Assembly (NCBI RefSeq): GCF_019392195.1
Contig: NZ_JAHXKI010000002.1
Location: 2,108,001-2,172,000 of the forward strand
Direction: 5' to 3'
From: Marinobacter sp. F4206
Lineage (GTDB): Bacteria > Pseudomonadota > Gammaproteobacteria > Pseudomonadales > Oleiphilaceae
DNA: 64,000 bases
The translations under genes and the position numbers were made by a program. Numbering within the stretch: position 1 is the first letter of the stretch; each line of letters opens with the position of its first letter. This document shows positions 10,159 to 31,684 of the stretch, piece after piece. The notes beneath the pieces are model-generated. The model was given only the letters and a program-made list of their open reading frames with translations. It made no database searches and had not been told where the DNA came from.

Positions 10159-10442
10159 GTCTGTTTACCCATGTGTTGTTGGAATATTTGCTATCCGACG
10201 TTTCCCCGAATCAGAACGGGTGAGAGGGACAGGGGAGTGGACGTTTTACAACGGGGGAAACAAAGAGAAGCAGTAAAAGGCGCCTAAAATTTGATAATAA
10301 ATGCCAAGCCAATTATTGGCGTGAAAAGCCAAAAGTTGTTCGCGTTGGGTTAAATGTTTGTTTGAGCTTCGATCTAGGATGAGGCGATCTGGGCTGCCAT
10401 GCTTCCGGTAGCCCGGTTCAAGATCCAATGACGGAGTGCGCT
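10159..10442. promoter_or_regulatory. Divergent promoter region (SDR / haem-propeller gene)
   Basis: This 284-base, AT-richer stretch separates the minus-strand SDR gene and the plus-strand haem/propeller gene. It contains the palindrome GCCAAT-T-ATTGGC (10308-10320) overlapping the shared motif ATTGGCGTGAAAAGCCAAA (10315-10333). A possible -10 (TAGGAT, about 10375) lies further downstream. No small gene is supported. Confidence 0.55.
10315..10354 (+). promoter_or_regulatory. AraC-type operator candidate, copy 1
   Basis: ATTGGCGTGAAAAGCCAAA at 10315-10333 matches the site at 31645-31663 in 17 of 19 positions and contains the inverted repeat TTGGC-N7-GCCAA. It ends 109 bases before ATG 10443. 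The position 21 bases downstream (from 10338) is only a poor second copy (7 of 17). See the copies at 22083, 27768 and 31645. Confidence 0.6.
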
Positions 10443-12143
10443 ATGACTACAAGAAACAAAAAGACCGTCGCGGGCGCGGTCACCATGTCGGCCTTGCTGT
10501 TTGCCGCTTTCCCGGCGTCTGCTGGGGTCGTGTCTGGCAAGCTGGCCAGTGCTGACGGCGACGCGATCGCCGGTGCCATCATCCGACTGACGAATGTGCA
10601 AGAGGGCATCTCCGAGTCTGTTTACAGTGATGCCAATGGCGAATATGTATTGGAAACGGACCTGCAAGGCGAACTCCGCCTGAGATTTCGCGCGCATTAT
10701 TTCGCCGATCATGAGGAGCAGATCGTCCTCTCTGATGCCTCAGCAACCCTTGAAAAAGATGTCCGTATGACCGCGCTCGATGCGGAGCGTGAAATCTCGG
10801 AGAGTCTGGCTGCGTCTTATCATTTCAATGAGTTGCCGTTCGATACCAGCGAAGATGAGCCCTTTACCCGGGATAAGTTCCAGCTTGAGTGCCTGTCCTG
10901 TCACCAGTTGGGCAATCCCTTCACCCGTACCGTTCGCCCGGCGGAGTCCTGGCAACAAACGGTGCAGCGCATGCACGCCTACATGGGCGCCATGGACATT
11001 ACCGAGAAGGACCGGCGCCGGGCCGAGATTTTCGCGGAAGGGTTTGATGGCAAGCCCACGGAAATGCGACCGGACTTCCCATATGACAAGGCCCTGGCGC
11101 ACACGAAAGTCTATGAATACCAATTGCCCAGTTCCGGTGTGCCGCACGACGCCTACGTGCACTCGGAAAACGGTTTGGTCTACACCGTGGATCAGTTCGC
11201 CGACGGCATGTACGTGACGGACCTTGAGAAGGGCGAGACGGAGTTTGTGCCGCATCCGGAACAGGGCATGCCGTTGGGTGGCATCTTCACGGTGCTGGGT
11301 GTTCCTCCGGCGATGAATAAGGTCAACGTGCGCCACGGTCCGCATTCATTGGCCGAAGGCCACGATGGCAAGCTGTACGTGACCAATTCCTACTCCGCCT
11401 CTATCGGTGTGTTCAACCCCGAAACCAATGCGTGGGAACAGAAGATCGCGCTGCCGGGCAACGCGCCCTACCCGCATACCATTCGCGTGGATAGCAAAGG
11501 TATCCTCTGGTTCAGTGTGGTTGGAACCGAGCAGATCGGGCGGCTGGATCCGAAAAGCCAGGAAGTCACCCTGATCGATCTGCCGGAGCCGCGTCCGGTG
11601 GCCATCACGCCGGCCGTTCTGACCTATGGTGTGGCCGTCAGCACGCTCGATGGTTCGATCTGGTACAGCCGGCTCTGGGGTAATCGCATCGGTCGTATCG
11701 ACCCGGACACCCTGGAAGTGACCGAAATTGAATCCCCGGTGTTTGGCCCGCGCCGTTTGCGTTTTGCCGAGGATGGCATCCTCTGGCAGACCGGTTACGG
11801 TCACGGCGAGATCGCGCGTATCGATACCAGGACCATGGACACGAAGGTCTATGAAATGCCGGAGTTTGCGCCGGGCGCCCGTCCGGGCCCCTACTCCCTG
11901 AACATCGCGCCTAGCACCGGCGATGTGTGGGTCAATGAGACCATGACTGACCATATTTACCGGTTTGATCCTGAGCAGGAGAGATTCATCGCCTACCCGG
12001 CGCCCCTGCGTGGCACCTACACCCGGGACGTCACGTTCACGAAAGCGGGTTGGGCCTGCATGACCAACAACCCGATTCCGGTCCAGGCCCTGGAAGAATT
12101 TACCGGTGTGCTGATGTGTCTGGATCCGAACTACCGCCGTTGA
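10443..12143 (+). CDS. Exported carboxypeptidase-regulatory-like / c-haem / Vgb-type beta-propeller protein
   Basis: A 566-residue periplasmic protein. It starts at ATG 10443 (MTTRNKKT) with GGAG upstream; an ATG at 10428 is in frame but overlaps this site. A signal peptide ends near ASAG (residue ~24). Residues ~25-110 resemble a carboxypeptidase-regulatory-like (CarboxypepD_reg) beta-sandwich. A single CLSCH haem c site lies near residue 150. From ~220 to the end are repeated YxxDxxxxxWF/IGRIDPxT blades of a virginiamycin-B-lyase-like propeller (GRLDPKSQE, GRIDPDTLE, ARIDTRTMD). The whole could bind and oxidise or sense a hydrophobic or quinone-like ligand, but no activity can be assigned. 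It is monocistronic, with a strong terminator. Confidence 0.8.
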   Translation: MTTRNKKTVAGAVTMSALLFAAFPASAGVVSGKLASADGDAIAGAIIRLTNVQEGISESVYSDANGEYVLETDLQGELRLRFRAHYFADHEEQIVLSDASATLEKDVRMTALDAEREISESLAASYHFNELPFDTSEDEPFTRDKFQLECLSCHQLGNPFTRTVRPAESWQQTVQRMHAYMGAMDITEKDRRRAEIFAEGFDGKPTEMRPDFPYDKALAHTKVYEYQLPSSGVPHDAYVHSENGLVYTVDQFADGMYVTDLEKGETEFVPHPEQGMPLGGIFTVLGVPPAMNKVNVRHGPHSLAEGHDGKLYVTNSYSASIGVFNPETNAWEQKIALPGNAPYPHTIRVDSKGILWFSVVGTEQIGRLDPKSQEVTLIDLPEPRPVAITPAVLTYGVAVSTLDGSIWYSRLWGNRIGRIDPDTLEVTEIESPVFGPRRLRFAEDGILWQTGYGHGEIARIDTRTMDTKVYEMPEFAPGARPGPYSLNIAPSTGDVWVNETMTDHIYRFDPEQERFIAYPAPLRGTYTRDVTFTKAGWACMTNNPIPVQALEEFTGVLMCLDPNYRR

Positions 12144-12180
12144 ATCAGAAGTTCCCCCTTGTTGTTGTGCTCCATGTTTC

Positions 12181-12208
12181 GCCCGGGCCGATTGGTCCGG
12201 GCTTTTTT
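12181..12208 (+). terminator. Intrinsic terminator after the haem/propeller gene
   Basis: A 9-bp stem, GCCCGGGCC / GGTCCGGGC (one G-U pair), with loop GATT is followed by six T. The T tract runs into the stop codon of the convergent BatD-like gene. Confidence 0.92.
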
Positions 12209-13472
12209 ATCTCTGACGGGCGTTCAGAGGAGGGAGTTGCGCGGGGTGTGGGCCACGGTCGGTCCGGGGGGCGCCTTTAATCTTTCGTATCAGAGGGATC
12301 AGTCTGCGGGTGCTCGTTTCCGGTTCCGGGTGGGTGGCATAGTAGCCGGCAATGCCTGCGAGCAGGGCCTCCCGCTGCCGGGAGTTCAAGGGACTGTGGC
12401 GCAGTGAATGCGTGCCGGTCCGTTTGTCCGTGAGCCGGTAAAGCCCCGTCAGTTCTCTGGGCGTTCCCCTGATCTGCTGGATGGCGGCCTGCTTTCGTCC
12501 AGGCACGGAATTCTGCCACCGGCTGCAGACCCGGTTGATAAAGAACCTTGTGCGTGAGCGGATTGCCCGCCGGTAGCCTGCCAGGATCGCCATCGATGCC
12601 CCGGCGGCCAGCATGAAAAGGAACCACCTTGTCTGACCCCGGCTTCCCGATGGGCCGGCTCCGGGCAGGACCGCGATCGGCAAAGCGGGTAATGTCGACT
12701 GCCGGATCCTTTCATCGTCAATATCCCACCAGGTGATTGAGAGGGCGGGCAGGCGATAAGTCCCTGGCTGGTCCGGGCTATAGCGGATGCGCTCGATGCG
12801 CTCCCCGCCCGTGACCCAGCCGCCCTCGTTGGTGACCGGCCGGATGTCTGCCGGTAGTCGCGTGCCCGCTACAGCACCGGTTGAGGACGGAATCAGGGGA
12901 GGGATCGACAGGGCCAGGGCCTGGTGGGCCTGTACCCGAATTTCCCGAACGATAGGGTGGCCGGCGACGATGCTGGCACCGGCCGTGCTGAGGCTCTGGC
13001 TCAATCGGACGTCCGCGGCCAGAAGGGAAATGGCGGAGGACTCGACGCCCGGGAGTGGCTGAACGGCAAACGATCGCTCCGGTGTAGACACGGCAACCGG
13101 GGCATCTTCCTGACCCACCGGGGCCTCAATGCGAAATGACGGCAGGGTCCTGACGCCCGGTTCCAGGGGAATCAGGCGGTAGCTGTAAGTGACTCCGAAA
13201 TACCGCTTGCCCTTGATCGTTCGCTGAATGCTCCGGCCCTGGCTGCCCTCGAAAAACACCAGGGCGCCCGCGACCTCCAGAGGCCGGAATTCCGGGGTAC
13301 CGGTCAGCCAGGTGTCGGTCAGGACATCCACTTCGTAGGAGACCGTCTGGCCTGAGCGGATGTCGGCGTCCGGAACCAGTCGGGTCTGGATCCTCACTTC
13401 CGCGGCCAGAGTCTGACCTGCCAGGCCGGAAAGGAACAGGGCGGCGAGAACCGGTCTTCCCGCCCATCTCAT
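12207..13472 (-). CDS. BatD-like protein
   Basis: A 421-residue membrane protein, last gene of the sulfatase-MoxR-Bat operon. A signal peptide ends LAA-E. The N-terminal part (VRIQTRLVPDADIRSGQTVSYEVDVLTD) carries the beta-sandwich repeats of the BatD (aerotolerance) family, with a YSYRLIPLEPGVRTLPSF segment characteristic of such domains. A transmembrane helix lies around residues 270-290 (WFLFMLAAGASMAILAGY) before a basic cytoplasmic tail. Bat proteins are thought to form an envelope-associated complex with a MoxR ATPase and VWA proteins; their molecular role is unsettled. The start overlaps the previous stop by 4 bases. No terminator for this strand is seen downstream. Confidence 0.8.
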   Translation of the reverse strand: MRWAGRPVLAALFLSGLAGQTLAAEVRIQTRLVPDADIRSGQTVSYEVDVLTDTWLTGTPEFRPLEVAGALVFFEGSQGRSIQRTIKGKRYFGVTYSYRLIPLEPGVRTLPSFRIEAPVGQEDAPVAVSTPERSFAVQPLPGVESSAISLLAADVRLSQSLSTAGASIVAGHPIVREIRVQAHQALALSIPPLIPSSTGAVAGTRLPADIRPVTNEGGWVTGGERIERIRYSPDQPGTYRLPALSITWWDIDDERIRQSTLPALPIAVLPGAGPSGSRGQTRWFLFMLAAGASMAILAGYRRAIRSRTRFFINRVCSRWQNSVPGRKQAAIQQIRGTPRELTGLYRLTDKRTGTHSLRHSPLNSRQREALLAGIAGYYATHPEPETSTRRLIPLIRKIKGAPRTDRGPHPAQLPPLNARQR

Positions 13473-14956
13473 GGTTGTTCTCCGGCCTGCTTGCGCTGCT
13501 CGGCAGCAAACCTGCGTTTCAGAAAGTCTGTGGTCGAGGTATTCAGGTTTTCCAGCCAGACCGCGTCGGTGACAGCCTGCTGCTCCCGGATTCTGGTGCT
13601 GATTCCCTCCCTGGCCTCCTTGTCGAATCGGAGGTCATCGGCGCCGATGTCCGGAGCTTTCTCCCGGCCCTCATCGAGGTTTTCCGACAGGCGTTCTACC
13701 AGCGTCAGGTTCGTCCTCGCGGCTTCCAGCCCGGGATCTCTCTTCAGCGCCGTTTCAAAAGCGATCCGCGATTTTCCCAGTTCCAGTTGCCGGGCGTAAC
13801 TGTTGCCAAGGTAAAACCAGGCCCGGGCGGTATCCAGCTGCCTGAAACTGTCAACGGCGGCCTCAAAATCGGCAGCGCGGTAGGCCGCCAGGCCCCGCAG
13901 GTACGGATCATGGAAACGTTGCGCAGCGTCTGCGTAGTCCCCGGCTTCGAAGGCCAGGCGCCCCTGCTGGTCTGGCGTCAGAAACGCATTGGCCAGAGCG
14001 CCCGCGTTGGCTTGTGGCGTTGGAGCCATCAGTACTGCCAGCGCAACCAGGCAGCCCTGGAGGTTCCATCCCTTGCGAATGGATACCAGGGCCAGCAGCA
14101 GGGCAGGCCAGACCAGCCAGTAACCGTAGTCGTGCCACTTGAGCGCCTCATCAAGGCTTTGCTGTCGCTGGAAATGCGACTGGACTTGGCTTTCAAGCCA
14201 TTGGACATCCGCTTTCGTGGTCGTGAACGGTCGGGCTTCGGCAGAGAGTGTGCTCAGAACAGAGTGGGTTGCACTGGACGACACCGTCGCTGGCGGCAGC
14301 AGTGCCAGCACGTTCAGCCCGTCTCGATTGCTCCATGACGTTGGGAGTTGCGCAGAGGCCAGGTTGTCCGAAAACAGAAGGACTGTTTGCGGGCCACTCT
14401 CATCCAGCGCCGCCATGGCGAGATTCAGTGCGGCTGCCAGGTTGCGTCCCTGGCCCGGAATCATGCCCGCCTCAAGGGAGTTGAGATACAGGCTGAGCAG
14501 CTGCCTGTCCCGGCTATGGGGCAACACGCGATGGGCGCTTTGGGCGTATCCAGTCAGAGCTATGTGCCAGCCGGGCCGGCGTTCCGCGAGTGACTGAATA
14601 CGGTCCTGGGCCAGTGCCAGCGCACCGGTGTCGGTCATGGATTCGGACAGGTCGAGGACGACGGTTACCCGGGTCTGGTCGTCGACATAGGGCGGCAGCA
14701 GTCGGTCCCAGGTGGGCCCGGCAACCGACAGCCCGGCCACCACCAGCAGCAGGCTGAAACCATGGACGGGCCGGAAACGTGTCTGGCTTTTGCTGTTCAG
14801 CGCGAGGTGTGGCAGCAGGTGCGGTGCAATCATCCGGCTGAGCGCATCCCGGCGGCGACTGGTCATGTGCCATGCTGGCAGCAATGCAAGGCCCGCGAGC
14901 ACGATCAGCAGGCCCCAGGGGCGCAGAAAATGAAACTGGGCGATCGCTTCGGTCAT
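13469..14956 (-). CDS. VWA and TPR membrane protein (BatB-BatC type fusion)
   Basis: A 495-residue protein with an N-terminal membrane helix (GLLIVLAGLALLPAW), a second helix around 60-80, then a von Willebrand factor A domain with the MIDAS motif LDLSESMTD (DxSxS). Another membrane segment (LVWPALLLALVSI) near 285 precedes three TPR-like helical repeats (LAFEAGDYADAAQRF, AAYRAADFEAAVDSF, GNSYARQLELGKSRIAFE). The C-terminus is charged. In other bacteria the VWA part (BatB) and TPR part (BatC) are often separate; here they are one chain. It overlaps both neighbours by 4 bases (ATGA type), implying translational coupling. Confidence 0.85.
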   Translation of the reverse strand: MTEAIAQFHFLRPWGLLIVLAGLALLPAWHMTSRRRDALSRMIAPHLLPHLALNSKSQTRFRPVHGFSLLLVVAGLSVAGPTWDRLLPPYVDDQTRVTVVLDLSESMTDTGALALAQDRIQSLAERRPGWHIALTGYAQSAHRVLPHSRDRQLLSLYLNSLEAGMIPGQGRNLAAALNLAMAALDESGPQTVLLFSDNLASAQLPTSWSNRDGLNVLALLPPATVSSSATHSVLSTLSAEARPFTTTKADVQWLESQVQSHFQRQQSLDEALKWHDYGYWLVWPALLLALVSIRKGWNLQGCLVALAVLMAPTPQANAGALANAFLTPDQQGRLAFEAGDYADAAQRFHDPYLRGLAAYRAADFEAAVDSFRQLDTARAWFYLGNSYARQLELGKSRIAFETALKRDPGLEAARTNLTLVERLSENLDEGREKAPDIGADDLRFDKEAREGISTRIREQQAVTDAVWLENLNTSTTDFLKRRFAAEQRKQAGEQP

Positions 14957-17385: not shown

Positions 17386-17396
17386 GGTGGCTCCCC

Positions 17397-18371: not shown

Positions 18372-18385
18372 AACGTCCCCGATTC

Positions 18386-19933: not shown

Positions 19934-19945
19934 TTTGTTCTCCTG

Positions 19946-19997
19946 TCGAAGCTTGCAAGCGTTATTGTCAGAGGTTGGCTTTTTTCGCTTGCTTCGA
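19946..19997. promoter_or_regulatory. Long inverted repeat in the sulfatase/Crp divergent region
   Basis: TCGAAGC(TTG)CAAGCG at 19946-19961 pairs with CGCTTGCTTCGA at 19986-19997: 12 paired bases, a 3-base bulge, and a 24-base middle containing TTGGC and T6. It is in the leader of the sulfatase gene and could be an operator or leader hairpin. A direct repeat GTAAC-N4-GTAAC lies at 20026-20039, just before the Crp/Fnr gene. Confidence 0.4.
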
Positions 19998-20047
19998 GTC
20001 TACGGCAGGAGCCTCGGGCAACACTGTAACCAGAGTAACAATCCAAT

Positions 20048-20731: not shown

Positions 20732-20817
20732 CGGCCGCGCTCCGAATGTCCCGGTTAATACTTAAAAGGTTAAGTTGTTGGCGGTTGAAGTTAAATAACC
20801 GGTCAGGCGGGTTTGTA

Positions 20818-22082: not shown

Positions 22083-22122
22083 ATTGGCGGGAAATAACAA
22101 GAAAACGGCATTTTCTATCATG
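22083..22122 (+). promoter_or_regulatory. AraC-type operator candidate, copy 2
   Basis: ATTGGCGGGAAATAACAAG at 22083-22101 keeps the ATTGGCGNNAAA core. Exactly 21 bases further on (22106) comes CGGCATT, like the second copy at 31668. It ends 99 bases before ATG 22201, in the AraC/cupin divergent region. A separate TGGCA-N5-TGCCA inverted repeat lies closer to the cupin start. Confidence 0.55.
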
Positions 22123-22200
22123 TGCCGTCATCGGAATCGGGTGACCATGAAATCTGGCAGGTATTGCCAACGGCAAAACAATCTACAAGAGAGGTCGACC

Positions 22201-22731
22201 ATGACGACGCCAAACCAGGTTTTTGAGCACCACGAACTGCTTTATGTGAATTCCAAGAATCAGCCTGTTTATGAAGACGCCATGCCAGGCGTGCCAGGCA
22301 TTGATGTACAACCGCTTTTCCTTGATCCGCATAACGGTGTCTGGGTGCTGAAAGTCTGGTTCCATCCGGGCGTGACTCTGCCCCGTCACTACCACACGGG
22401 CACGGTGCACCTGTTCACGATTTCGGGTCATTGGGAATACAAGGAATACCCCAACGATCCCCAGACCGACGGTTGCTACCTGTACGAGCCGGGCGGTTCT
22501 ATTCACCAGTTCACCACACCGGCGACCAACACCGGGCCGACAGAGACCCTGATGGTGGTGCACGGCGCCAACGTCAATTTCGACGACGATGGCAACTACC
22601 TGGGCATCATGGATGCCAGCGACATCATGATCATGCTGGACAACCTGATCCGGGAACGGGGCCTGGAGCCGGCGAACTACATTACGCCGCCCCAGCCGGA
22701 CCACAACGCCCGGGTCCGTAACGTCAAGTAA
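22201..22731 (+). CDS. Cupin dioxygenase-like protein (2,4'-dihydroxyacetophenone dioxygenase family)
   Basis: A 176-residue single-domain cupin. It starts at ATG 22201 after AGAGGT. The cupin motif VTLPRHYHTGTVHLFTISGHWEY gives the metal ligands (H of RHYHTG, an acidic or histidine ligand downstream), and the second motif PGGSIHQFTTP supplies the last histidine. The DAD family cleaves C-C bonds in hydroxyacetophenones with iron, but many relatives are uncharacterised. In this context, before an acyl-CoA ligase and a VOC protein, it may oxidise a hydrophobic ketone whose acid product is then activated. It is the first gene of the operon under operator copy 2. Confidence 0.75.
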   Translation: MTTPNQVFEHHELLYVNSKNQPVYEDAMPGVPGIDVQPLFLDPHNGVWVLKVWFHPGVTLPRHYHTGTVHLFTISGHWEYKEYPNDPQTDGCYLYEPGGSIHQFTTPATNTGPTETLMVVHGANVNFDDDGNYLGIMDASDIMIMLDNLIRERGLEPANYITPPQPDHNARVRNVK

Positions 22732-22748
22732 GACAGCCAGTGCAGAAG

Positions 22749-22793
22749 CGCCCTCCCGGCCAAAACAGGTTTTCCCGGGTAGGGCGTTTCTTT
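22749..22793 (+). terminator. Attenuator-like hairpin between cupin and ligase genes
   Basis: CGCCCTCCCGG pairs with CCGGG(T)AGGGCG around a 15-base loop and is followed by TTTCTTTGT. It is imperfect as a terminator and sits 34 bases before the ligase start, so it may tune the expression ratio. Confidence 0.5.
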
Positions 22794-22826
22794 GTATCCG
22801 AACAGTCAATAAAGGTAGAGAAAACC

Positions 22827-24452
22827 ATGAAACCCTGGCTTGATTCATACCCCGCGGATGTTCCCCCCACGATTGACCCTGACACCCACGCCTCCGTTAC
22901 CAGCTTGTTTAATGACGCCATCAAGCGTTTCCCGGAGCACGCCGCGCTGGAGTGCTTTGGTCACACCATGACGTATGGCCAGCTTGATGAAGCCTCGGAT
23001 GCCCTGGCCTGCGCCCTGCAGCAGCAATACGGGGTGAAGAAGGGCGACCGGGTCGCGGTCATGTTGCCGAATATCTTTGCCTATCCGGTGGCCATGTTGG
23101 CGATTCTCAAGGTGGGCGCCATCCAGGTGAACGTGAACCCCCTGTACACGCCGAGGGAACTTGAACACCAGCTGAATGATTCCGGCGCCGAAACGATGTT
23201 CATCTACTCGGGCTCCTTGGCGTCGCTGACCCCGATCCGTGACGCCACGCCCGTATCTCAGGTGATTGTGGTCAATCCCGGTGATGGTGCCGGCCTCCCG
23301 ATTCCTGGTAGCGACATTCCCGCCGAACTGGGCGAGTTTACCGGCATGGCGGACCTGTTGGCGCACAACGCGGGTAATAAACCCACTGAAGTACCGGTGT
23401 CCGGCGATGATGTCCTGTTTCTGCAATACACCGGTGGAACCACAGGCCCCTCCAAGGGCGCGACACTGACTCACCGTAACCTGGTTGCCAACAGCCTTCA
23501 GTTCCGGAGCTTCATACCCGAGGCGAACGAACCTGGGGAGGAGGTGCTGGTGCTGGCACTGCCGATGTATCACATCTTTGGCCTGATGATTTTCGTGGCC
23601 TACGCGGCCATCGGAGCCAAAGCCATCCTGATTCCCAATCCTCGTGACATGGACGCCTACCTGAAGGCCATCAAGGATTCCGGGTTCACCGTTATTGGTG
23701 GCGTCAATACCCTGTACGCGGGCATGACCCAGCATCCCCTGTTCAAGGACGTGGACCTGTCCCGTTACAAAGTGGCATTTGGGGGTGGCTCCAAGATCTT
23801 CCCGAGCACCTCCAAGGCCTGGAAGTCTTTCACCGGGGCTCACATCCTGGAAGGCTTCGGTTTGTCCGAAACCTCGCCGATCCTCACCCTGAACCTGATG
23901 GGGCAGGAAGCATTCAGCGGCACGGTGGGCTATCCGGTACCGTCCACTGAGGTCAAGATCATCGATGAGCAAGGTAACGCACTGCCTGCCGGAACGCCGG
24001 GCGAACTCTGTGCCCGCGGACCCCAGGTCATGAAGGGGTACTGGAACCGGGAGCAGGCAACGGCCGATACCTTCACCGAGGATGGCTTTTTCAAAACCGG
24101 TGATGTCGCGGTCATGCACCCGGACGGTCAGTTCGAGATTGTTGATCGCAAGAAAGACATGATCATTGTCTCGGGTTTCAACGTTTACCCCAACGAGGTG
24201 GAAGCCGTTGCCAGTGAGTTGCCCGAGGTTGCTGAATCGGCCTGTATCGGTGTGCCGGACGAGAAAACCGGTGAGCGCATCCGCCTGTTCGTGGCGCCGA
24301 CCGAGGGATCCGCGATCGACAAGGACGCGGTGATGGCACATTGCCGGCAGAGTCTCGCCGCCTACAAGGTTCCGAAGGAAATCGAGGTGCTGCAGGAGCT
24401 GCCCAAGTCAAACGTTGGCAAGATCCTGAGGAAGGATCTGCGCGTTGTCTGA
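22827..24452 (+). CDS. Long-chain acyl-CoA ligase (FadD-like), second copy
   Basis: 541 residues from ATG 22827 (MKPWLDSYPADVPP); longer frames from 22740 run through the hairpin and lack a ribosome site, whereas AAAGG precedes this ATG. It has the ANL motifs YTGGTTGPSKGATLTH, EGFGLSETSP, FFKTGDVAVMH and KSNVGKILRKDLR. It closely matches the ligase at 3036-4658. It probably activates the acid made by, or metabolised alongside, the cupin and dehydrogenases nearby, feeding acyl-CoA to beta-oxidation or to the WS/DGAT enzymes. Confidence 0.9.
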   Translation: MKPWLDSYPADVPPTIDPDTHASVTSLFNDAIKRFPEHAALECFGHTMTYGQLDEASDALACALQQQYGVKKGDRVAVMLPNIFAYPVAMLAILKVGAIQVNVNPLYTPRELEHQLNDSGAETMFIYSGSLASLTPIRDATPVSQVIVVNPGDGAGLPIPGSDIPAELGEFTGMADLLAHNAGNKPTEVPVSGDDVLFLQYTGGTTGPSKGATLTHRNLVANSLQFRSFIPEANEPGEEVLVLALPMYHIFGLMIFVAYAAIGAKAILIPNPRDMDAYLKAIKDSGFTVIGGVNTLYAGMTQHPLFKDVDLSRYKVAFGGGSKIFPSTSKAWKSFTGAHILEGFGLSETSPILTLNLMGQEAFSGTVGYPVPSTEVKIIDEQGNALPAGTPGELCARGPQVMKGYWNREQATADTFTEDGFFKTGDVAVMHPDGQFEIVDRKKDMIIVSGFNVYPNEVEAVASELPEVAESACIGVPDEKTGERIRLFVAPTEGSAIDKDAVMAHCRQSLAAYKVPKEIEVLQELPKSNVGKILRKDLRVV

Positions 24453-24464
24453 GGTGGGATTCCG

Positions 24465-25436
24465 ATGAGCACATACTGCAGTCAGATTGCCTTCGTGTGT
24501 CAGGATGCCAAGGCCCTCCGGTCCTGGTACGGCACCCTGTTCGGTTTTGTGTCGTCGGGGCGGACCATCTATGCGGGCAAGCTGTCTACCCGGGTGATGG
24601 GAATCGACGGCGTAAATACACGCTGCTATTGGTCCCTCGATGGCAATGCCGACATGTTCCAGCTGGAGTTCTTCGACTTCCGGTCGCCGGAAATGCGGCC
24701 CCGCCCGGAACACTGGAGCCCGGCGATGCCGGGTTATGCCTGTATCGGAATCTATAGCCAACGGTTCCAGTGTTGCGTTGATGCCCTGTCGGCCCAGCAG
24801 CGTCTGGAAGCCGTGGAGGGAGAGACCGGTGGCCGGGTGGCCTACGCCAGTGACCCCGAGGGTAACGCGCTGGAAATCTATGAGCGGGATCCCCTGCCGG
24901 ACGCTGGCTGGAATGGCCGGAAGCAACCGTCCGCAGTGCGGCTGATCCGGCTCAATTCCCACGATGCCGAAGGCGTGGCGCGTGCCTGGTCTGGCTCACT
25001 TGGCGTCACGCCGGTGCAGATGCCCGAGGGGTGGGCTCAGCGTCTCTCCGTGGTGAAGCAGGGTCTGTCAGAACCTAGGTACCTGCGTGGCGGCGGCGTT
25101 GTGGTGGAAATCTGTCGCACCCCTGAGCCGTTTCCAGGGGGGCAGCGTCCGGCGTTGTACCAGCACGGTTTCATGAACTTTGCCCTTAACACCCAGTCCC
25201 GGATTGAATGGGACGAGGTGTATGCCCAAGCGCTCTGGTCGGGGTTTCGGGCCAATGGAAAGGCTCTGGAGGCGGGCATATTCAAAGTCATGTATATCAA
25301 TGACCCGGACGGCAATAGCATAGAGCTTCTGTACCCCCGAAAATTTGCCTACCGGGTGACCGGCTTTCGCCCCAGCCTTCGCCTGGGTGCACCCCTTCGG
25401 TGGCTGCGCCGATGGCTGGCCCGGCGCGGGCAATAA
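24465..25436 (+). CDS. VOC (glyoxalase/extradiol dioxygenase fold) protein, two modules
   Basis: 323 residues, with GAGGTGGG before ATG 24465, 12 bases after the ligase stop. Two vicinal-oxygen-chelate modules are visible, about residues 5-145 (IAFVCQDAKALRSWYGTLFGF; DPEGNALEIYERD) and 155-300 (VRLIRLNSHDAEGVARAWSGSLGV; DPDGNSIELLYPRK). DPxGNxxE is the usual metal-ligand and dimer strand of the fold. The histidines of classic extradiol dioxygenases are not clear, so a catalytic class is not assigned. The C-terminus is arginine rich. It is the last gene of the cupin-ligase-VOC operon, which ends in a strong terminator. Confidence 0.72.
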   Translation: MSTYCSQIAFVCQDAKALRSWYGTLFGFVSSGRTIYAGKLSTRVMGIDGVNTRCYWSLDGNADMFQLEFFDFRSPEMRPRPEHWSPAMPGYACIGIYSQRFQCCVDALSAQQRLEAVEGETGGRVAYASDPEGNALEIYERDPLPDAGWNGRKQPSAVRLIRLNSHDAEGVARAWSGSLGVTPVQMPEGWAQRLSVVKQGLSEPRYLRGGGVVVEICRTPEPFPGGQRPALYQHGFMNFALNTQSRIEWDEVYAQALWSGFRANGKALEAGIFKVMYINDPDGNSIELLYPRKFAYRVTGFRPSLRLGAPLRWLRRWLARRGQ

Positions 25437-25469: not shown

Positions 25470-25483
25470 TCGTATTCGACGGC

Positions 25484-26563
25484 TTATTCTGACGGTTTTA
25501 CCAGAATCTTGACGTCGTTTTCAGGCGTGCCCAGGCGGTCGAAGGCGGATTCGATATCACTCAGGCCCACCGTGTCGGAAATCAGCCCACCGGCATCGAG
25601 CTCGCCGTTGGCAAGGTGGTTCAGGGTCGCGCCGAATTCCTCACCGCTGTAGAAACTGACAAAGCGGAGATCGATTTCTTTCATGACCGGGTAGGACGGC
25701 ATCATCGCGTCCTTTTCCATGCACAGACCCACCACCACGACCCGGGCCCCGTAGGGTGCGCCGGTACAGACATTCTGGATCAGGCCAGGTACACCCACAC
25801 ATTCAAAAATCAGCGAGGGTCTCAGGTCGGCGCCTCCGAACAGGGGTGAGATCGGGCCGGCCTCTTCCGGATTCGCAGTCTGGGCTGCTTCTTTCCAGCT
25901 TTCATAGGGTGAATGCTCTGCCGGGTTGACCACGACATCCGCGCCCATTTTTCTGGCAAGGTCGCGACGCGCTCTCGAGAAATCCGACGCCACGATGGGG
26001 CCAATCTTCATCATTTTCAGCACGGCAATAACGGCAAGACCGATCGGGCCGCAGCCGATGACCAGGGGTACGTGGTTCCGGGTTGGCTCGCCCCGGTTAA
26101 CCGCGTGCAGGGCAACGGCCATGGGCTCAGTCAGAGCCGCCATTTCCGGGCTCAGGCCATTGGGGACTTTCATGGTGAGCCGGCTGTCGACCAGCATCTG
26201 CTCGGAAAAGCCCCCGGGAACGTCGGCGGAACTGAAGCCAATCATGGCAAGACCCTCTTCCCGCATCAGGAAGGGCAGGGAGACAACCTGGTCGCCAGCC
26301 TTGAACGTCGAGCCTTGCCGGGTCTCCAGGACTTCCCCGACAAACTCGTGGCCCATCAGGATGGGTTTGTCGGCGTCGATGATGGAACTACCCACGACCT
26401 CGCGGGAGCTCTCGGCCAGTTCATGGGTGTGGTGCCGGCAATGCAGGTCGGACCCGCAGATGCCGCAAACCAGAGATTTGATGAGGAGCTCGTTCTCACG
26501 TGGTTTGGGTTCCGGCAAATCCACGATCTTCAGGTTGTTGTCTTCAACGATGGCACTTCGCAT
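25484..26563 (-). CDS. Zinc-dependent alcohol dehydrogenase (MDR family)
   Basis: 359 residues. The catalytic zinc site is seen in CGICGSDLH (Cys near residue 34) and GHEFVGEV (His-Glu near 71). The nucleotide-binding motif is VIGCGPIGLAVIAV, with an acidic residue (ASDF) after it, suggesting NAD. The four-cysteine structural zinc lobe normally found around residues 90-110 is absent: that segment reads SLPFLMREEGLAMIGFSSAD with no cysteines. The enzyme would oxidise an alcohol to an aldehyde or ketone. It lies 46 bases downstream of the epimerase gene, with a hairpin between them, and is probably co-transcribed. Confidence 0.87.
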   Translation of the reverse strand: MRSAIVEDNNLKIVDLPEPKPRENELLIKSLVCGICGSDLHCRHHTHELAESSREVVGSSIIDADKPILMGHEFVGEVLETRQGSTFKAGDQVVSLPFLMREEGLAMIGFSSADVPGGFSEQMLVDSRLTMKVPNGLSPEMAALTEPMAVALHAVNRGEPTRNHVPLVIGCGPIGLAVIAVLKMMKIGPIVASDFSRARRDLARKMGADVVVNPAEHSPYESWKEAAQTANPEEAGPISPLFGGADLRPSLIFECVGVPGLIQNVCTGAPYGARVVVVGLCMEKDAMMPSYPVMKEIDLRFVSFYSGEEFGATLNHLANGELDAGGLISDTVGLSDIESAFDRLGTPENDVKILVKPSE

Positions 26564-26599
26564 CGGGGGTCTCCTTGGTGTGTGTTGTTGGCAAAGTCA

Positions 26600-26624
26600 G
26601 AGGCCCGCGTCAGGTGCGGGCCTC
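26600..26624 (-). terminator. Hairpin at the epimerase/dehydrogenase junction
   Basis: A perfect 9-bp inverted repeat, GAGGCCCGC-N7-GCGGGCCTC, spans the stop codon of the epimerase gene. No real T tract follows on the minus strand, so it more likely stabilises the upstream mRNA or attenuates than terminates. Confidence 0.45.
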
Positions 26625-27662
26625 CTGGTCAAAGGACGGACTGTCGGTTCGGCTCAGTTCTCCGATCTCTCTGAGCCATGCTTCGGAGCGTTTCATGCCC
26701 TCTTCTAGGTTGACCTTGGGTTCGAAGCCGAGGTGCTTTCGTGCGTTTTCGATGGAGAATCCGCCCTTGCGCGCGAACATCAGCATCGCGTCCGGCGTGA
26801 CCTCGTTGGGGCGCTTGAGCTTGCGGTTCAGCCACCAGATGCCCTGGGTGAGTTTCAGGGCAGCAGCCAGAGGCATGCTCGGTGGGAAACCCTTGTTGCT
26901 GGCCCAGCGCCAGTGATTCATGAAGAATTCCCGGCAGGTCACGGGCTCGTCGCTCCAGAGGATAAAAATGCGGCCGCTGCCGGAGGGCAGGCCGGCGGCG
27001 AGCAAGGTGCCGTCGACCAGGTCATCGATGTACACCGGGGTGAAGATGCCCTTGCCCCGGTTGGGCAGGATCAGTTGGCCGGCCCGGGCCATCTTCAGGG
27101 GCTCCAGCAACCAGGGGCGGGAGCCCGGACCGTAGACGTCGCCCGGGCGGATGATGGTGCAGTCGATCTCGCCGGCAGCGTGGGCTGCCAGGACGGTATG
27201 CTCCGATGCGCCCTTGGCCACGCCGTAGCGGTAGTGTTCACCAATCACCACGGGCGCCGTCTCGTCCGCTCCCGGCTCGTAGTCATAGCCCATGGCTGCG
27301 ATGGATGAATAATGCACGAAGCGCTGTGCGCCGCCGGCAATGGCAACGTCCAGGGCGTTGCGAACGCCGACCAGCGAGGTGGTGGTATAGGTCTCCCAGT
27401 CGGCAGCCAGAGACACCACCGCCGCAGTGTTGATAAAGAGGTCGCAGTCTTTGGCGTGATCACGCCAGCCTGACGGCTCGGTGAGGTCTCCCGCTATGAC
27501 GTTGCGCTCTTCATCGGCGTGCAGATCCATACCACGGACGTCACAGCCCAGTTCGCGGTAACGGCGGTGAAGGGTGCGCCCGATGAAGCCGTTGGCGCCC
27601 GTGATGAAGACTTTTGCGGGGAGGGACGGTTTTTGCCCGTCCCGACCGGTTGGGAGAGACAT
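26610..27662 (-). CDS. NAD-dependent epimerase/dehydratase family (3-beta-HSD-like) oxidoreductase
   Basis: 350 residues of the extended SDR class. It has the Rossmann motif FITGANGFIGRTL near residue 18, an aspartate after beta-2 (GMDLHAD) favouring NAD, the catalytic YRYGVAKGASE (YxxxK) and HYSS(I) with the catalytic serine. Relatives include 3-beta-hydroxysteroid dehydrogenase/isomerases and sterol C4 decarboxylases, and proteins acting on long-chain beta-hydroxy acids such as OleD. A fatty or isoprenoid substrate is therefore plausible but unproven. AGGAG precedes ATG 27662. It is divergent from the esterase-WS/DGAT operon over a 205-base region that carries operator copy 3. Confidence 0.8.
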   Translation of the reverse strand: MSLPTGRDGQKPSLPAKVFITGANGFIGRTLHRRYRELGCDVRGMDLHADEERNVIAGDLTEPSGWRDHAKDCDLFINTAAVVSLAADWETYTTTSLVGVRNALDVAIAGGAQRFVHYSSIAAMGYDYEPGADETAPVVIGEHYRYGVAKGASEHTVLAAHAAGEIDCTIIRPGDVYGPGSRPWLLEPLKMARAGQLILPNRGKGIFTPVYIDDLVDGTLLAAGLPSGSGRIFILWSDEPVTCREFFMNHWRWASNKGFPPSMPLAAALKLTQGIWWLNRKLKRPNEVTPDAMLMFARKGGFSIENARKHLGFEPKVNLEEGMKRSEAWLREIGELSRTDSPSFDQEART

Positions 27663-27753
27663 GGGGGGCTCCTGTTCTGTTTATTGTGTTGCTCCTATCG
27701 TGCTCAGTTTTCAGTGCCGTTATTTTTCAATTCACGACAAATTACAGGTAAAA

Positions 27754-27776
27754 CACGCCACGCATTCCGTGGCGTG
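27754..27776. promoter_or_regulatory. Perfect 9-bp inverted repeat in divergent promoter
   Basis: CACGCCACG-CATTC-CGTGGCGTG lies between the epimerase and esterase genes. Its right arm overlaps the first half of operator copy 3. It may be the binding site for a second, dimeric regulator, or may extend the AraC-type site to the left. Confidence 0.5.
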
Positions 27777-27807
27777 AAATGACAAGCTGTTGACGTTGTT
27801 AGCCAAG
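27768..27807 (+). promoter_or_regulatory. AraC-type operator candidate, copy 3
   Basis: TGGCGTGAAATGACAAG (27770-27786) is followed exactly 21 bases on by TGACGTTGTTAGCCAAG (27791-27807). Both match the 17-base unit TGGCGTGAAAAGCCAAA seen at 10317, in 14 and about 11 positions. The tandem ends 60 bases before ATG 27868. Confidence 0.62.
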
Positions 27808-27867
27808 GAGTAACTACGACTAATTGGTCATAGTGTGGGCAGAAATCACCCAACGGATTGGCTTTCC

Positions 27868-28875
27868 ATGAATTCAGGCTCTGACCCCACCCGGTATGTA
27901 ACGCGCCCGCTCGACCTCTCCTTCACGACTTGGTGCAAACTCCTTTTGCTGCGTTGGCTGCTGCGGCCAATGATGGCCTACCTGCTGCGGGGGCACCCCC
28001 GACGCGTCGCCAGGGCGCAGATTGGCATCGCCGGTCGCTGGGCAAGTGCCCGTCAGAAGGAGCGGTTTCACTATGACTACCACCGGGGCGAGGGCGGGGC
28101 GGTAGCCGGCCACTCGCTGGGTACCCCTTTCTCCCATACCGGCCATCCTGTACTTCTTTGGTTGCATGGCGGCGCCTTTGTGCTGCCGGCGATGCCCAGG
28201 GGGCATCTATCCTTCGCCGAGCGCCTCTGTGATCCCCTGGCTGCCAACGCCTTCGTTCCGGATTACCGGCTGGCGCCCGCCAACCCCTTTCCGGCCGCCC
28301 TCGACGATTGCGAAGCCGCCTACCGTCTGCTGCTCGATTCCGGGATTCCCGCTGAACGGATTGTGCTGGGCGGTGAGTCCGCGGGGGGCAACCTGCTGGT
28401 GTCGCTGCTGTACCGAATCCGGGATCGCGGAATGCCGATGCCGGCGTGTGCCATCGCGGTCTCGCCCGCCCTTGACCTTGCCCGGCTGCATGGTTCGCCT
28501 TCCCGGTTCGCCAATGCCGGTCGGGACGCCATGCTTCCGGTTGCCTCGCTGGCGCAAGCCCTGGACTGGTACCTGGACGGCGCTGACAGCGCCAACCCGG
28601 AAATATCGCCCCTGCTGGGTGAGTGCCGGGGCTTGCCACCGACCCTGATCGTCGCCAGTGAGGCGGAACTGCTGCGCGATGACAGTGTGCTATTTGCCCG
28701 CCGACTCGCCGCGGCCGGCGTCCCGACCGAACTGGCCCTGTGGCCCCATCTCCCGCACGCCTTCCCGCTGCTGGAGGACTGGCTCCCGGAAGCTGCCGGT
28801 GCCAGAGAACAAATAACAACGTTTATGAGAGAGCAGCTCCAGAGAGTAACTGGACGCTCGGGAGAGAGAGGATGA
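27868..28875 (+). CDS. Alpha/beta hydrolase of the hormone-sensitive-lipase family
   Basis: About 335 residues from ATG 27868 (MNSGSDPTRYV); a GTG at 27835 in the same frame is possible, and neither has a good ribosome site, so the start is uncertain. The family oxyanion motif is LWLHGGAFVL, the nucleophile elbow GGESAGGNLL, and the acid and histidine lie in the C-terminal third (DDSVLFARRL; PHLPHAFPLL). HSL-type enzymes hydrolyse short to long acyl esters. Its stop overlaps the following WS/DGAT start (ATGA), so ester hydrolysis and ester synthesis are translated together. No signal peptide is seen; it is probably cytoplasmic or membrane associated. Confidence 0.85.
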   Translation: MNSGSDPTRYVTRPLDLSFTTWCKLLLLRWLLRPMMAYLLRGHPRRVARAQIGIAGRWASARQKERFHYDYHRGEGGAVAGHSLGTPFSHTGHPVLLWLHGGAFVLPAMPRGHLSFAERLCDPLAANAFVPDYRLAPANPFPAALDDCEAAYRLLLDSGIPAERIVLGGESAGGNLLVSLLYRIRDRGMPMPACAIAVSPALDLARLHGSPSRFANAGRDAMLPVASLAQALDWYLDGADSANPEISPLLGECRGLPPTLIVASEAELLRDDSVLFARRLAAAGVPTELALWPHLPHAFPLLEDWLPEAAGAREQITTFMREQLQRVTGRSGERG

Positions 28876-30263
28876 CAAACTACAAGAAACTGACCCCACT
28901 GGACGCGGCCTTTGTCCAGCTGGAAAATCCCAGTGCGCCCATGCACGTTGCCGGTTTGATGATCTTCGAACTGCCGGCGAAAGCCGGCGCGGATTTCGTC
29001 ACCAGGCTGGTCGAGGACTGGCGTAGTGAAACCCGGATCAAGGCCCCCTGGAACCAGAAACTGGTGTCTCCGTCCCGTTGGCAGCTGGCGCCAAGACTCA
29101 AGACCTGCCACGACCCGGATCTTGAGTACCATGTCCGTCATCTGTTTTTGCCCAAGCCGGGCGGTCAGAGGGAGTTGGGGCAGCTGGTGGCCCGTCTGCA
29201 CAGTCAGCCCATGGACCTCAGAAAACTGTTGTGGGAATGCTTTATCATTGAGGGTCTGGCGGACAACCGCTTCGCCATCTACATGAAGTTCCACCACTCG
29301 ATGGTCGATGGCATCAGCGCGAATATCCTGCTGATGAAGGGGCTTTCCGAGCGCCGCGCCGACAGGAAAACGGCGCCGTTCTGGGTTCACTCGGCACCGG
29401 AAAAGCCATTCCAGCCCGGTCCTTTTCGCATTCCGTCTGCCCAGGCGCTGATGAGTACTGCGGCAAACGTCCTCAAGCTCTTCGGCAAAGACGATGACCT
29501 GACCACCTTTCGTTCGGCGCCCTACACCCCATTGAATGGCCCGATTGCAGCCCAGCGGCGTTTCGCCACCCAGAGCTTTTCGATGGATCGGATCAAGGCG
29601 GTGGCCCGACGGGCGGAGGTCAGCCTCAACGACGTGCTGCTCTGCCTGGTTGGCGGTACGCTCCGCCGATACCTGCAGCGAATTACGGCGCTTCCGGGCG
29701 ATAGCCTGACCGCCGCTATCCCGATATCCCTGCGCGCCGAGGGCGACCAGAGTTGCGGTAACGCCGTGGGCATGATTTTCAGTATCCTCGGCACCAACAT
29801 TGCGGATCCGGTGGTGCGCCTGCAGAAAATTCATCAGTCCACCGACCTGGCCAAACAGCAGGTGCTCGGTCTGCCCACGGAAATGCGGGTGCCCTATTCC
29901 CTTCTCAGCATGATGCCTTCGGTGCTCCGGATGCTCACGGGTGTCACCGGGAAAACCCGCCCGCTGTTCAACACGGTGGTGTCCAACGTGCCGGGAGGCT
30001 CTGAGGAAAAGTACCTGAGGGGCGCGCGTCTGGTGAATTTGTATCCGGCGAACATTGTGTTCCCGGGCATGGCGGCGAGCTTCACCTGCTACAGCCATGC
30101 GGGAACCCTCAACGTGGGGATCACAGCCTGCCGGGACACCGTGCCGAACATGCAGAAACTGGCGCTCGGCATGGAGGAGGCGTTCAGAGAACTTGAGGAA
30201 AAACTGGGCGTTGTTGAGCCTGCGCAAGCAGCGGTGGTAAACGCTGTCGAGGAGGCGGTATGA
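28872..30263 (+). CDS. Wax ester synthase / diacylglycerol acyltransferase (WS/DGAT), copy 1
   Basis: 463 residues from ATG 28872, just after GAGAGAGG and overlapping the esterase stop. The opening LTPLDAAFVQLENPSAPMHV is typical. The catalytic motif HHxxxDG is HHSMVDG near residue 141; SLNDVLL supplies the conserved ND, and NTVVSNVPG the C-terminal motif. The usual PLW triad is LLW here (RKLLWEC). These enzymes transfer an acyl group from acyl-CoA to a fatty alcohol or diacylglycerol at the inner membrane, making wax esters or triacylglycerol for storage. It overlaps the second WS/DGAT by 4 bases. The variant triad may reflect different specificity. Confidence 0.92.
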   Translation: MTNYKKLTPLDAAFVQLENPSAPMHVAGLMIFELPAKAGADFVTRLVEDWRSETRIKAPWNQKLVSPSRWQLAPRLKTCHDPDLEYHVRHLFLPKPGGQRELGQLVARLHSQPMDLRKLLWECFIIEGLADNRFAIYMKFHHSMVDGISANILLMKGLSERRADRKTAPFWVHSAPEKPFQPGPFRIPSAQALMSTAANVLKLFGKDDDLTTFRSAPYTPLNGPIAAQRRFATQSFSMDRIKAVARRAEVSLNDVLLCLVGGTLRRYLQRITALPGDSLTAAIPISLRAEGDQSCGNAVGMIFSILGTNIADPVVRLQKIHQSTDLAKQQVLGLPTEMRVPYSLLSMMPSVLRMLTGVTGKTRPLFNTVVSNVPGGSEEKYLRGARLVNLYPANIVFPGMAASFTCYSHAGTLNVGITACRDTVPNMQKLALGMEEAFRELEEKLGVVEPAQAAVVNAVEEAV

Positions 30264-31645
30264 CCCTGAGAAAAATGCCGTTGCTGGATGCCGCGTCGCT
30301 GCAGCTGGAGGGTAAGAAGATGCCCATGCACATTGCGGCGCTGATGACCTTTTCCTATCCCGCCTCGTTGACCGATCACGAACGCAAAACGTTCGTCAGT
30401 GGCCTGGTCGCGCGCTGGCGAGAGGAAACCCGGGTTGTCTATCCGTGGAATCAGGTGCTCACGCGTCCTACCCGTTGGCAGCTCAGGCCCACGACCCGGG
30501 AAGTCTACGATCTGGACCTGGAATACCACCTCAGGCAGTGGTCCCTGCCAGCGCCCGGCGGTGAGAAGGAGCTGGGCCACATGATCGCCTGGATTCACGA
30601 ATTGCCGATGGATCTGGAAAAGCCGCTGTGGGAGTGTCATTTCATCGAAGGGCTCTCCGAAAACCGATTTGCCCTCTACGTCAATATCCATCACGCGCTT
30701 GTCGATGGCATCAGTGGCACCCGTCTGGTGGTAGGCAGTCTGTCCACGGACGCGGACTCATTGAGTGCCCCCATGTGGGCAAAGGCCCAGGCCCAGGCGG
30801 AGGCGGGCACGGGCGAAGTCAAAGAGCCGGAAAGGGGCGCATTGCCACGCCTCGCTGACCTGAAGGCGGGTGCCGCAGCGTCCCTGAAGCTACGGACAAA
30901 AAACGAGACACTGACGACGTTCAGATCCACACCCGAGACCATCCTGAATGGCCCGATTGGCTCCCATCGCCGGGTTGCCACCCAGCACTTCGAATTGGCC
31001 AGGCTCAAGACGCTGGCAAAGACGACGGGTGCCACGGTTAATGATGTGGTGATGGCGATTGTGGGGGGCGCCTTGCGTGAGTACCTGATTGAGGCAAATG
31101 CCTTGCCCGAGGACTCGCTCACGGCGGCGCTGCCGGTTTCCACACGAAAACCCGGTGACGTCAGCATTGGCAATCAGGTAAGCCTGCTGTTCGGAAGCCT
31201 GGGAACCAATATTGCCGATCCGGCCCTTCGTCTGGAACACGTTAAACGGTCCACTCAGGCTGGTAAGGCCATGCTGAATGGTCTCCCTGCCCATGCCGTC
31301 AACGTCTACTCACTGCTTTCGACAGGTCCCTTTCTGTCGTCCGTGGTTCTGGGGCTCGGAAGGACAGGGCGCCAGCTGTTCAATACCACAGTCTCCAATG
31401 TCCCCGGACAGCGCGAGGCGCGCTACCTGGATGGCGCCGAATTGCTGCACGTCTACCCGGTAAGCCTGATCATGCCGGGCATTCCACTGAACTTCACTTG
31501 CGTCAGTCAGGGCGATTTCCTGAATTTCGGCATGGTGGCCTGCAGAGACCGGGTGCCTCATGTGCAGCGGCTGGCTGGGCTAATGGCCGAGGCCTTGGCC
31601 GAACTCGAAAAGAACCTCCTGCAACGCGGGGAGCGGTCGTCCTGA
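30260..31645 (+). CDS. Wax ester synthase / diacylglycerol acyltransferase (WS/DGAT), copy 2
   Basis: 461 residues in a 4-base overlap with copy 1. It has MPLLDAASLQLEGKKMPMH at the start, HHALVDG near residue 144, KPLWECHFIEG with the canonical PLW, TVNDVVMAIVGG with ND, and NTTVSNVPG. By eye the two copies are clear paralogues but well diverged, so the duplication is not recent. An insertion-like, Ala/Gly/Glu-rich linker (residues ~180-205) replaces a different linker in copy 1. Working with acyl-CoA ligases, alcohol dehydrogenase and the esterase, it points to turnover of storage esters in this region. Confidence 0.92.
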   Translation: MTLRKMPLLDAASLQLEGKKMPMHIAALMTFSYPASLTDHERKTFVSGLVARWREETRVVYPWNQVLTRPTRWQLRPTTREVYDLDLEYHLRQWSLPAPGGEKELGHMIAWIHELPMDLEKPLWECHFIEGLSENRFALYVNIHHALVDGISGTRLVVGSLSTDADSLSAPMWAKAQAQAEAGTGEVKEPERGALPRLADLKAGAAASLKLRTKNETLTTFRSTPETILNGPIGSHRRVATQHFELARLKTLAKTTGATVNDVVMAIVGGALREYLIEANALPEDSLTAALPVSTRKPGDVSIGNQVSLLFGSLGTNIADPALRLEHVKRSTQAGKAMLNGLPAHAVNVYSLLSTGPFLSSVVLGLGRTGRQLFNTTVSNVPGQREARYLDGAELLHVYPVSLIMPGIPLNFTCVSQGDFLNFGMVACRDRVPHVQRLAGLMAEALAELEKNLLQRGERSS

Positions 31646-31684
31646 TTGGCGCCAAAAGCCAAATTTGTGGCATTGAAGAGCAAA
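31645..31684 (+). promoter_or_regulatory. AraC-type operator candidate, copy 4
   Basis: ATTGGCGCCAAAAGCCAAA (31645-31663) begins on the last base of the WS/DGAT stop codon and contains TTGGC-N7-GCCAA. A second copy, TGGCATTGAAGAGCAAA, starts exactly 21 bases after the first TGGC (31668), followed by a -10-like TAGGTA at about 31691. It would drive the envelope block starting at 31782 separately from the upstream acyltransferases. Confidence 0.62.

What the first reader, a model, noticed from the sequence alone, without database searches (positions are those of the whole stretch)
10315..31684. One AraC-type tandem operator in front of four transcription units
The 19-base motif ATTGGCGTGAAAAGCCAAA at 10315 recurs as ATTGGCGCCAAAAGCCAAA at 31645, ATTGGCGGGAAATAACAAG at 22083 and CGTGGCGTGAAATGACAAG at 27768. 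All are on the plus strand, 80-120 bases before a start codon. At 22106, 27791 and 31668, exactly 21 bases after the first TGGC, a degenerate second copy begins (CGGCATT..., TGACGTTGTTAGCCAAG, TGGCATTGAAGAGCAAA). Two half-sites two helical turns apart is the classic AraC-family layout. The four units encode the haem/propeller protein, the cupin-ligase-VOC operon, the esterase-WS/DGAT operon and the DUF1302-DUF1329-Ycf48-RND block. This implies one regulon tying lipid turnover to an envelope export system. The regulator is probably the AraC protein at 20973-22034.
Basis: partly seen in the sequence, partly recalled or inferred. Interest (0 to 1): 0.82.

Follow-up and report, generated by a model that had tools for sequence, protein, structure and literature searches.

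The report
One AraC-type switch for a lipid island
Several sets of lipid-handling and export genes in this Marinobacter-type bacterium share the same paired regulator-binding site at a fixed distance from their promoters, and a regulator encoded among them very probably switches them together; the layout is a known kind, this particular regulon seems undescribed.

Summary
All four sites lie at the stated coordinates; in the 4.03-Mb genome the shared pattern matches exactly only there. The 21-bp tandem copy is real, degenerate at the propeller promoter, and a -10-like hexamer starts 58-59 bases after the first TGGC in all four, weakest at the cupin. The composite recurs upstream of orthologous genes in other Marinobacter and Microbulbifer species, and spacing 21 stands out in 32 loci not used for training. 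The regulator is most likely the 20973-22034 protein: relative G017 keeps it and all four sites but has no orthologue of the other two AraC proteins, and the propeller gene occurs only in genomes that have it (8 of 8). Probable further minus-strand targets are 3BHSD-ADH (27760), SDR-reductase (10306) and ligase-sulfatase (4801). The closest solved relative is VirS, whose mymA operon has a similar gene set. This looks like a class II AraC activator regulon, a new member of a known kind. Binding, activation and inducer are inferred, not shown.

The parts
10317..10333 (+). distal half-site, propeller promoter
   Evidence: retained in 8 of 8 propeller loci
10338..10354 (+). proximal half-site (degenerate), propeller promoter
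   Evidence: 21-bp register; similar sequence in L079 and L081
10375..10380 (+). -10-like TAGGAT, propeller promoter
22085..22101 (+). distal half-site, cupin promoter
22106..22122 (+). proximal half-site, cupin promoter
   Evidence: 21-bp register
22143..22148 (+). -10-like GACCAT (weak), cupin promoter
   Evidence: score 0.2
27770..27786 (+). distal half-site, esterase promoter
27791..27807 (+). proximal half-site, esterase promoter
27829..27834 (+). -10-like CATAGT, esterase promoter
   Evidence: same hexamer at 58-59 in L080, L081, L082
31647..31663 (+). distal half-site, DUF1302 promoter
31668..31684 (+). proximal half-site, DUF1302 promoter
31706..31711 (+). -10-like AATACT, DUF1302 promoter
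27723..27760 (-). candidate tandem operator of 3BHSD-ADH, back to back with the esterase operator
   Evidence: score 14.3; counterparts in L158, L080, L082, L092
10269..10306 (-). candidate tandem operator of SDR-reductase, back to back with the propeller operator
   Evidence: score 13.0; counterparts in L157, L159, L084
4764..4801 (-). candidate tandem operator of ligase1-sulfatase1
   Evidence: score 17.9; counterpart in L159 and, before cupin-ligase, in L081
20973..22034 (-). AraC-family regulator, PF12625 plus HTH_18, VirS-like; proposed regulator
10443..12143 (+). Vgb-type beta-propeller with one CxxCH motif
22201..25436 (+). ChrR-type cupin, long-chain acyl-CoA ligase, VOC protein
27868..31645 (+). 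esterase (Abhydrolase_3) and two WS/DGAT acyltransferases
31782..38474 (+). DUF1302, DUF1329, Ycf48-like, RND transporter (Ame-type block)
   Evidence: HAE3 model TIGR00921 best NCBIfam hit but 152.2 bits, below its cut-off 351.9
25484..27662 (-). Zn-dependent alcohol dehydrogenase and 3BHSD-like epimerase
8352..10158 (-). NADP-dependent reductase and SDR
1276..4658 (-). sulfatase and acyl-CoA ligase

Best explanation
The sites are operators of a local regulon controlled by the VirS-like AraC protein encoded at 20973-22034. A dimer, probably made competent by an acyl or other lipid-derived ligand, binds two 17-bp half-sites set head to tail with a 21-bp repeat. The proximal half-site ends 20 bases before the -10 hexamer, so it covers the -35 position and the regulator recruits RNA polymerase there (class II activation). 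The ligand thereby switches on ester hydrolysis, CoA activation, alcohol or ketone oxidation, wax-ester synthesis and an Ame-type export block together. Supported by computation here: the sites, their spacing, the -10 position, their conservation and their co-occurrence with this regulator. Inferred: binding, activation, dimer and ligand.
For: Exact pattern only at the four sites in the own genome. Same four sites in G016 and G017 with changes at degenerate positions only. Matrix from three close genomes: 10 of 15 hits in 8 diverged loci fall in target upstream regions, 9 of 12 regions hit, 0.13 hits expected. Offset 21 best of 97 for the four window sites and for 16 external sites; 22 places at spacing 21 against 0-4 at the 17 other spacings in 32 untrained loci. 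-10 peak at offset 58. Second half-site variable in 4 of 68 columns and -10 stretch in 2 of 32 against 158 of 496 in flanks. G017 has no orthologue of the other two AraC proteins. Propeller in 8 of 120 genus genomes, all 8 among the 12 with the regulator, 8 of 8 with a composite site.
Against: No binding or expression data. The cupin -10 is weak and the propeller's proximal half-site very degenerate. The narrow matrix hits only 2 of 14 target regions in the 32 mostly Pseudomonas loci. Six weaker external sites show no -10 peak at 58. Paralogous PF12625 regulators seem to use similar operators, so another family member could bind. The 16 external sites were chosen by me from 39 rows, and three of the 12 target regions were filled only by reading degenerate sites by eye.
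Confidence: 0.8

Rival explanations
1. Another regulator of the island (AraC 4773-5807, AraC 38485-39555 or the CRP-like protein 20048-20731) binds the sites.
For: All three lie in the window in or beside the island. AraC 4773-5807 is of the same PF12625 type and 30% identical to the proposed regulator; the 4801 site beside it may be its own. Orthologues of AraC 38485-39555 exist in most of the other regulator-bearing genomes searched.
Against: G017 keeps all four sites without an orthologue of either AraC protein and without the CRP-like gene in the 38 kb around the island (not searched genome-wide).
Confidence: 0.07
2. The 20973-22034 protein binds the sites but mainly represses, or works in both directions, as AraC does at araBAD without inducer.
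For: Divergent operators lie close or back to back, which would suit looping or mutual exclusion; AraC represses from araI1 with araO2 (passages of PMC4760080).
Against: The half-sites lie upstream of the -10 in the position of class II activators, not over the start site; VirS activates its operon (passages of PMC10272862).
Confidence: 0.11
3. The sites are chance matches or copies of one duplicated promoter, without a regulatory role.
For: The motif was picked by eye; with 1 mismatch the own-genome count (18) is near the backward control (13).
Against: The promoters share little outside the half-sites and -10, these are retained while flanks change, and the composite recurs upstream of orthologues in other species.
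Confidence: 0.02

Closest known systems
VirS-mymA regulon of Mycobacterium tuberculosis
   Same: VirS is the closest solved relative of the regulator (N-terminal fold). The mymA operon lists monooxygenase, acetylhydrolase, an SDR-type acetoin dehydrogenase, alcohol dehydrogenase, two diacylglycerol acyltransferases and an acyl-CoA ligase (table passage of PMC6018540); the island has all these families except the monooxygenase.
   Different: There one divergent operon; here several operons, plus sulfatases, propeller, cupin, VOC and an Ame-type block. No monooxygenase among the window proteins scanned; one (FMO-like) stands under a composite site in L087. The mycobacterial operator was not compared.
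araBAD control by AraC (araI1-araI2)
   Same: Two half-sites in direct repeat next to the polymerase site (passages of PMC4760080); 17-bp half-sites, 21-bp repeat and overlap with -35 are recalled.
   Different: Different N-terminal domain and sequence motif; several promoters, no araO2-like site identified.
AmeABCD of Castellaniella defragrans
   Same: Same cassette: DUF1302, DUF1329, COG4447-type and HAE3 RND proteins (passages of PMC6394551). P. putida homologues PP_0765/0766 are needed for Tween 20 metabolism (passages of PMC10866462).
   Different: There in a monoterpene island; here beside lipase and wax-ester genes under an AraC-type operator.

Membership tests
AraC/XylS family, PF12625 (VirS-like) type | N-terminal PF12625 domain and C-terminal HTH_18 | tested here: met
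   120.8 bits (cut-off 27.6) and 67 bits (cut-off 33.6)
AraC/XylS family, PF12625 (VirS-like) type | fold of a solved member | tested here: met
   VirS 8rcx E 1.9e-56 by profile; predicted N-terminal domain on 8rcw, target TM 0.90
QhpR equivalog (NF049968) | score above the curated cut-off | tested here: not met
   239.3 bits, cut-off 250
Class II AraC-type activator promoter | two half-sites in direct repeat about two helical turns apart | tested here: met
Class II AraC-type activator promoter | proximal half-site reaching the -35 position, fixed distance to -10 | tested here: met
   offset 58 best of 62 over 14 sites; no transcription start mapped
Class II AraC-type activator promoter | binding and activation by the regulator | not testable with these tools
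   needs footprinting and deletion
VirS-mymA type regulon | VirS-like regulator divergent from a target operon | tested here: met
   20973-22034 (-) divergent from the cupin operon with the operator between
VirS-mymA type regulon | Baeyer-Villiger-type monooxygenase in the controlled operon | tested here: not met
   none among the window proteins scanned with Pfam; not searched genome-wide; present in L087
VirS-mymA type regulon | esterase, SDR, Zn-ADH, two WS/DGAT, acyl-CoA ligase | tested here: met
   family matches, not orthology; spread over several operons
AmeABCD-type system | DUF1302-DUF1329-Ycf48-like-RND in this order | tested here: met
   order as in PMC6394551
AmeABCD-type system | RND protein of the HAE3 family | tested here: inconclusive
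   TIGR00921 best hit, 152.2 bits, cut-off 351.9

The most novel reading that the evidence does not exclude
This is the proteobacterial counterpart of the VirS-mymA regulon: a VirS-type, lipid-sensing activator that, through 21-bp tandem operators, some set back to back, controls a whole ester-uptake, acyl-recycling and Ame-type export island in Marinobacter, Microbulbifer and Pseudomonas. PF12625-type regulators as a class would share this operator grammar.
Probability: 0.4. Interest if true: 0.68.

Novelty: new member of a known kind. Interest (0 to 1): 0.52.

Why it matters
It gives a precise, testable operator (two 17-mers, 21-bp repeat, -10 at 58) for a class of AraC regulators with few known sites, and places an Ame-type export block of unknown substrate in one regulon with a lipase, wax-ester synthases and acyl-CoA ligases. 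The inducer, once found, would point to the substrate of the DUF1302/DUF1329 system. The parallel with VirS-mymA suggests a non-pathogen in which this type of regulator could be studied.

Tried and rejected
Rejected: AraC 38485-39555 and AraC 4773-5807 as master regulators. Filing the regulator as QhpR (below cut-off). A wide genome-wide regulon: the exact pattern has only the 4 sites, a consensus tandem pattern with 1 mismatch only the esterase site. A looser tandem pattern with 3 mismatches gives 33 matches in the own genome against 9 for the backward control; I did not examine these one by one, so further weak targets are not excluded. Of the 14 one-mismatch places elsewhere, 10 lie inside long ORFs; L005, L009, L013 and L015 lie between or at the ends of ORFs.

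Motif without regulator: the 34 other same-genus genomes, which lack a near-full-length orthologue (G027 has a 112-residue piece at 52% on a contig end), hold 29 exact matches against 21 for the backward control, at most 3 per genome (tally).

Led nowhere: searches for a described operator or regulon of this kind in the open-licence paper library (listings and starts of abstracts only) showed none; one search found no paper. Structure search and fold gave family, not ligand.

Weak points: ten places in the window score 12 or more, four the main sites, three the minus-strand candidates, and three (48292, 20758, 22920) without a known role. Loci L087-L118 include relatives of one another (L116 and L117 gave identical hits), so counts are not independent.
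Full report
Observation. The shared pattern TGGCGNNAAAWRMCAA matches exactly four times in the 4.03-Mb genome, all four in this 21-kb stretch, on one strand and upstream of genes, with none for the backward control. Fourteen further places have one mismatch, 10 of them inside long ORFs. Since the pattern was fitted to the sites, uniqueness alone proves little, so I looked for evidence in other genomes.

Genes. The units encode a beta-propeller with one CxxCH motif, cupin-ligase-VOC, an esterase with two WS/DGATs, and DUF1302-DUF1329-Ycf48-RND. Among the proteins scanned the window has three of the AraC family: 20973-22034 and 4773-5807 (both with PF12625) and 38485-39555.

Close relatives. Of 36 other same-genus genomes, two (G016, whose contig matches Marinobacter sp. 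F4218, and G017) have the regulator at 99 and 96% identity, and both carry these four sites with changes only at the degenerate positions; G017 has one further match elsewhere. In the four promoters of the three genomes the second half-site varies in 4 of 68 columns and the -10 stretch in 2 of 32, against 158 of 496 in flanks. The core (0 of 44) served to find the sites, so that figure is biased.

Which regulator. In G017 the 9-kb MoxR/VWA/sulfatase/CRP block between propeller and regulator is missing, and the genome has no orthologue of the other two AraC proteins: the best match to 38485-39555 is E 6e-10 over 88 residues, and to 4773-5807 the proposed regulator itself at 30%. It still has all four sites. 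In searches of 120 genus genomes the propeller (E up to 1e-60) occurs in 8 and the regulator (E up to 1e-70) in 12; all 8 are among the 12. A composite site stands upstream of the propeller in 8 of 8. L193, L196 and L197 (scores 37.1, 27.3, 23.7) were not in the training set, though L193 is nearly identical to G016. A site stands beside the regulator gene in 11 of 12 genomes; the exception, L208, is a 2.5-kb contig end.

Diverged orthologues. A profile of 25 regulator homologues brought 79 loci. A matrix made only from the three close genomes gave 15 hits (score 13.5 or more) in 8 Marinobacter/Microbulbifer loci with 55-73% identical regulators. Ten lie 60-280 bases upstream of homologues of the units' first genes, in regions that are 0.84% of the strand-bases scanned (0.13 expected), covering 9 of 12 such regions. 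The other three (L081 propeller, L082 DUF1302, L084 propeller), read by eye, hold degenerate tandem sites with a -10 at about the same place. In 32 further loci, nearly all Pseudomonas, that narrow matrix hit only 2 of 14 target regions: the motif drifts.

Architecture. Offset 21 is the best of 97 both for the four window sites and for 16 external sites that I chose from the 39 rows. With a composite matrix trained on 15 promoters, the 32 untrained loci show 22 places at spacing 21 and 0-4 at each of the 17 other spacings from 17 to 34; 30 column-permuted matrices give at most 1. Thirty-eight paralogue loci show 8 at spacing 21 and at most 2 at others, several next to the paralogue, so the grammar may be common to PF12625-type regulators. 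The -10 score peaks at offset 58 of 62 over 14 sites, while six weaker sites show no such peak. This is the layout of class II AraC activation, as at araI1-araI2 (passages of PMC4760080; exact distances recalled).

Further targets. On the minus strand the composite finds candidates at 27760 (3BHSD-ADH), 10306 (SDR-reductase) and 4801 (ligase1-sulfatase1), scores 14.3, 13.0 and 17.9; 20 Markov shuffles give on average 0.45 hits of 12 or more per 64 kb, with a largest score of 20.5. Three other window places of that score have no known role. Counterparts exist for ADH/3BHSD in L158, L080, L092 and about 300 bp before ADH in L082, for SDR in L157, L159 and L084, and for ligase1 in L159. In divergent promoters the two distal half-sites start 8-11 bp apart in the window, L157-L159, L080, L082 and L196, but 31 bp in L197 and 50 bp in L084.

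What it resembles. The closest solved relative is VirS (E 1.9e-56; next CdpR, 1.8e-19), and the N-terminal domain of the predicted model superposes on VirS with target TM 0.90 (model pTM 0.68). The mymA operon contains monooxygenase, acetylhydrolase, acetoin dehydrogenase, alcohol dehydrogenase, two acyltransferases and an acyl-CoA ligase (table passage of PMC6018540); VirS controls it and its activity rises on lipids (passages of PMC9044949; also PMC13234193). The island has these families except the monooxygenase, which was not found among the window proteins scanned; in L087 an FMO-like gene follows DUF1302/DUF1329 with a composite site in front. FadD13 is among the solved relatives of ligase1 but not the best. 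The export block is AmeABCD-like (passages of PMC6394551), and P. putida homologues matter for Tween 20 use (passages of PMC10866462). I therefore favour a lipid-derived inducer, which is inference.

Verdict. The finding is real and its main interpretation holds. It is a new regulon of a known regulatory kind. Binding, direction of control and ligand remain to be tested.

Noticed in passing
window 20758-20795, plus strand: A composite-like site (score 12.5) lies between the 3' ends of the CRP-like gene and the regulator, pointing into the regulator antisense; similar sites lie 3' of the regulator in G017 (L157:18461, 14.4) and G105 (L200:1282, 17.1). Unexplained; perhaps an antisense or small-RNA promoter.
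   Followed up: partly
window 12207-20731: A MoxR/DUF58/VWA/BatD block with a sulfatase and a CRP-like gene separates propeller and regulator here and in F4218, but not in G017, L079, L081 or L084.
   Followed up: partly
L065, L073, L068 and own-genome L009: TGGCGYNAAATGACAA-like sites recur in a promoter region beside a TetR-type gene in several Marinobacter genomes, outside any AraC island seen; possibly another regulator's site.
   Followed up: no
L005 (own genome C1:57203): A tandem-like TGGCGGCAAATGACACC with a second TGTCGCCAAGCGACAA 22 bases on stands before a FAD-binding oxidase gene.
   Followed up: no
L099-L113: In most of these Pseudomonas-type loci two regulator homologues stand in tandem (each 38-47% identical to the query), suggesting a duplicated pair.
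   Followed up: no
window 40050-50004: Beside the island lie molybdopterin oxidoreductase, Fe-S, cytochrome b561-type and Nar-delta-like genes, apparently unrelated.
   Followed up: no
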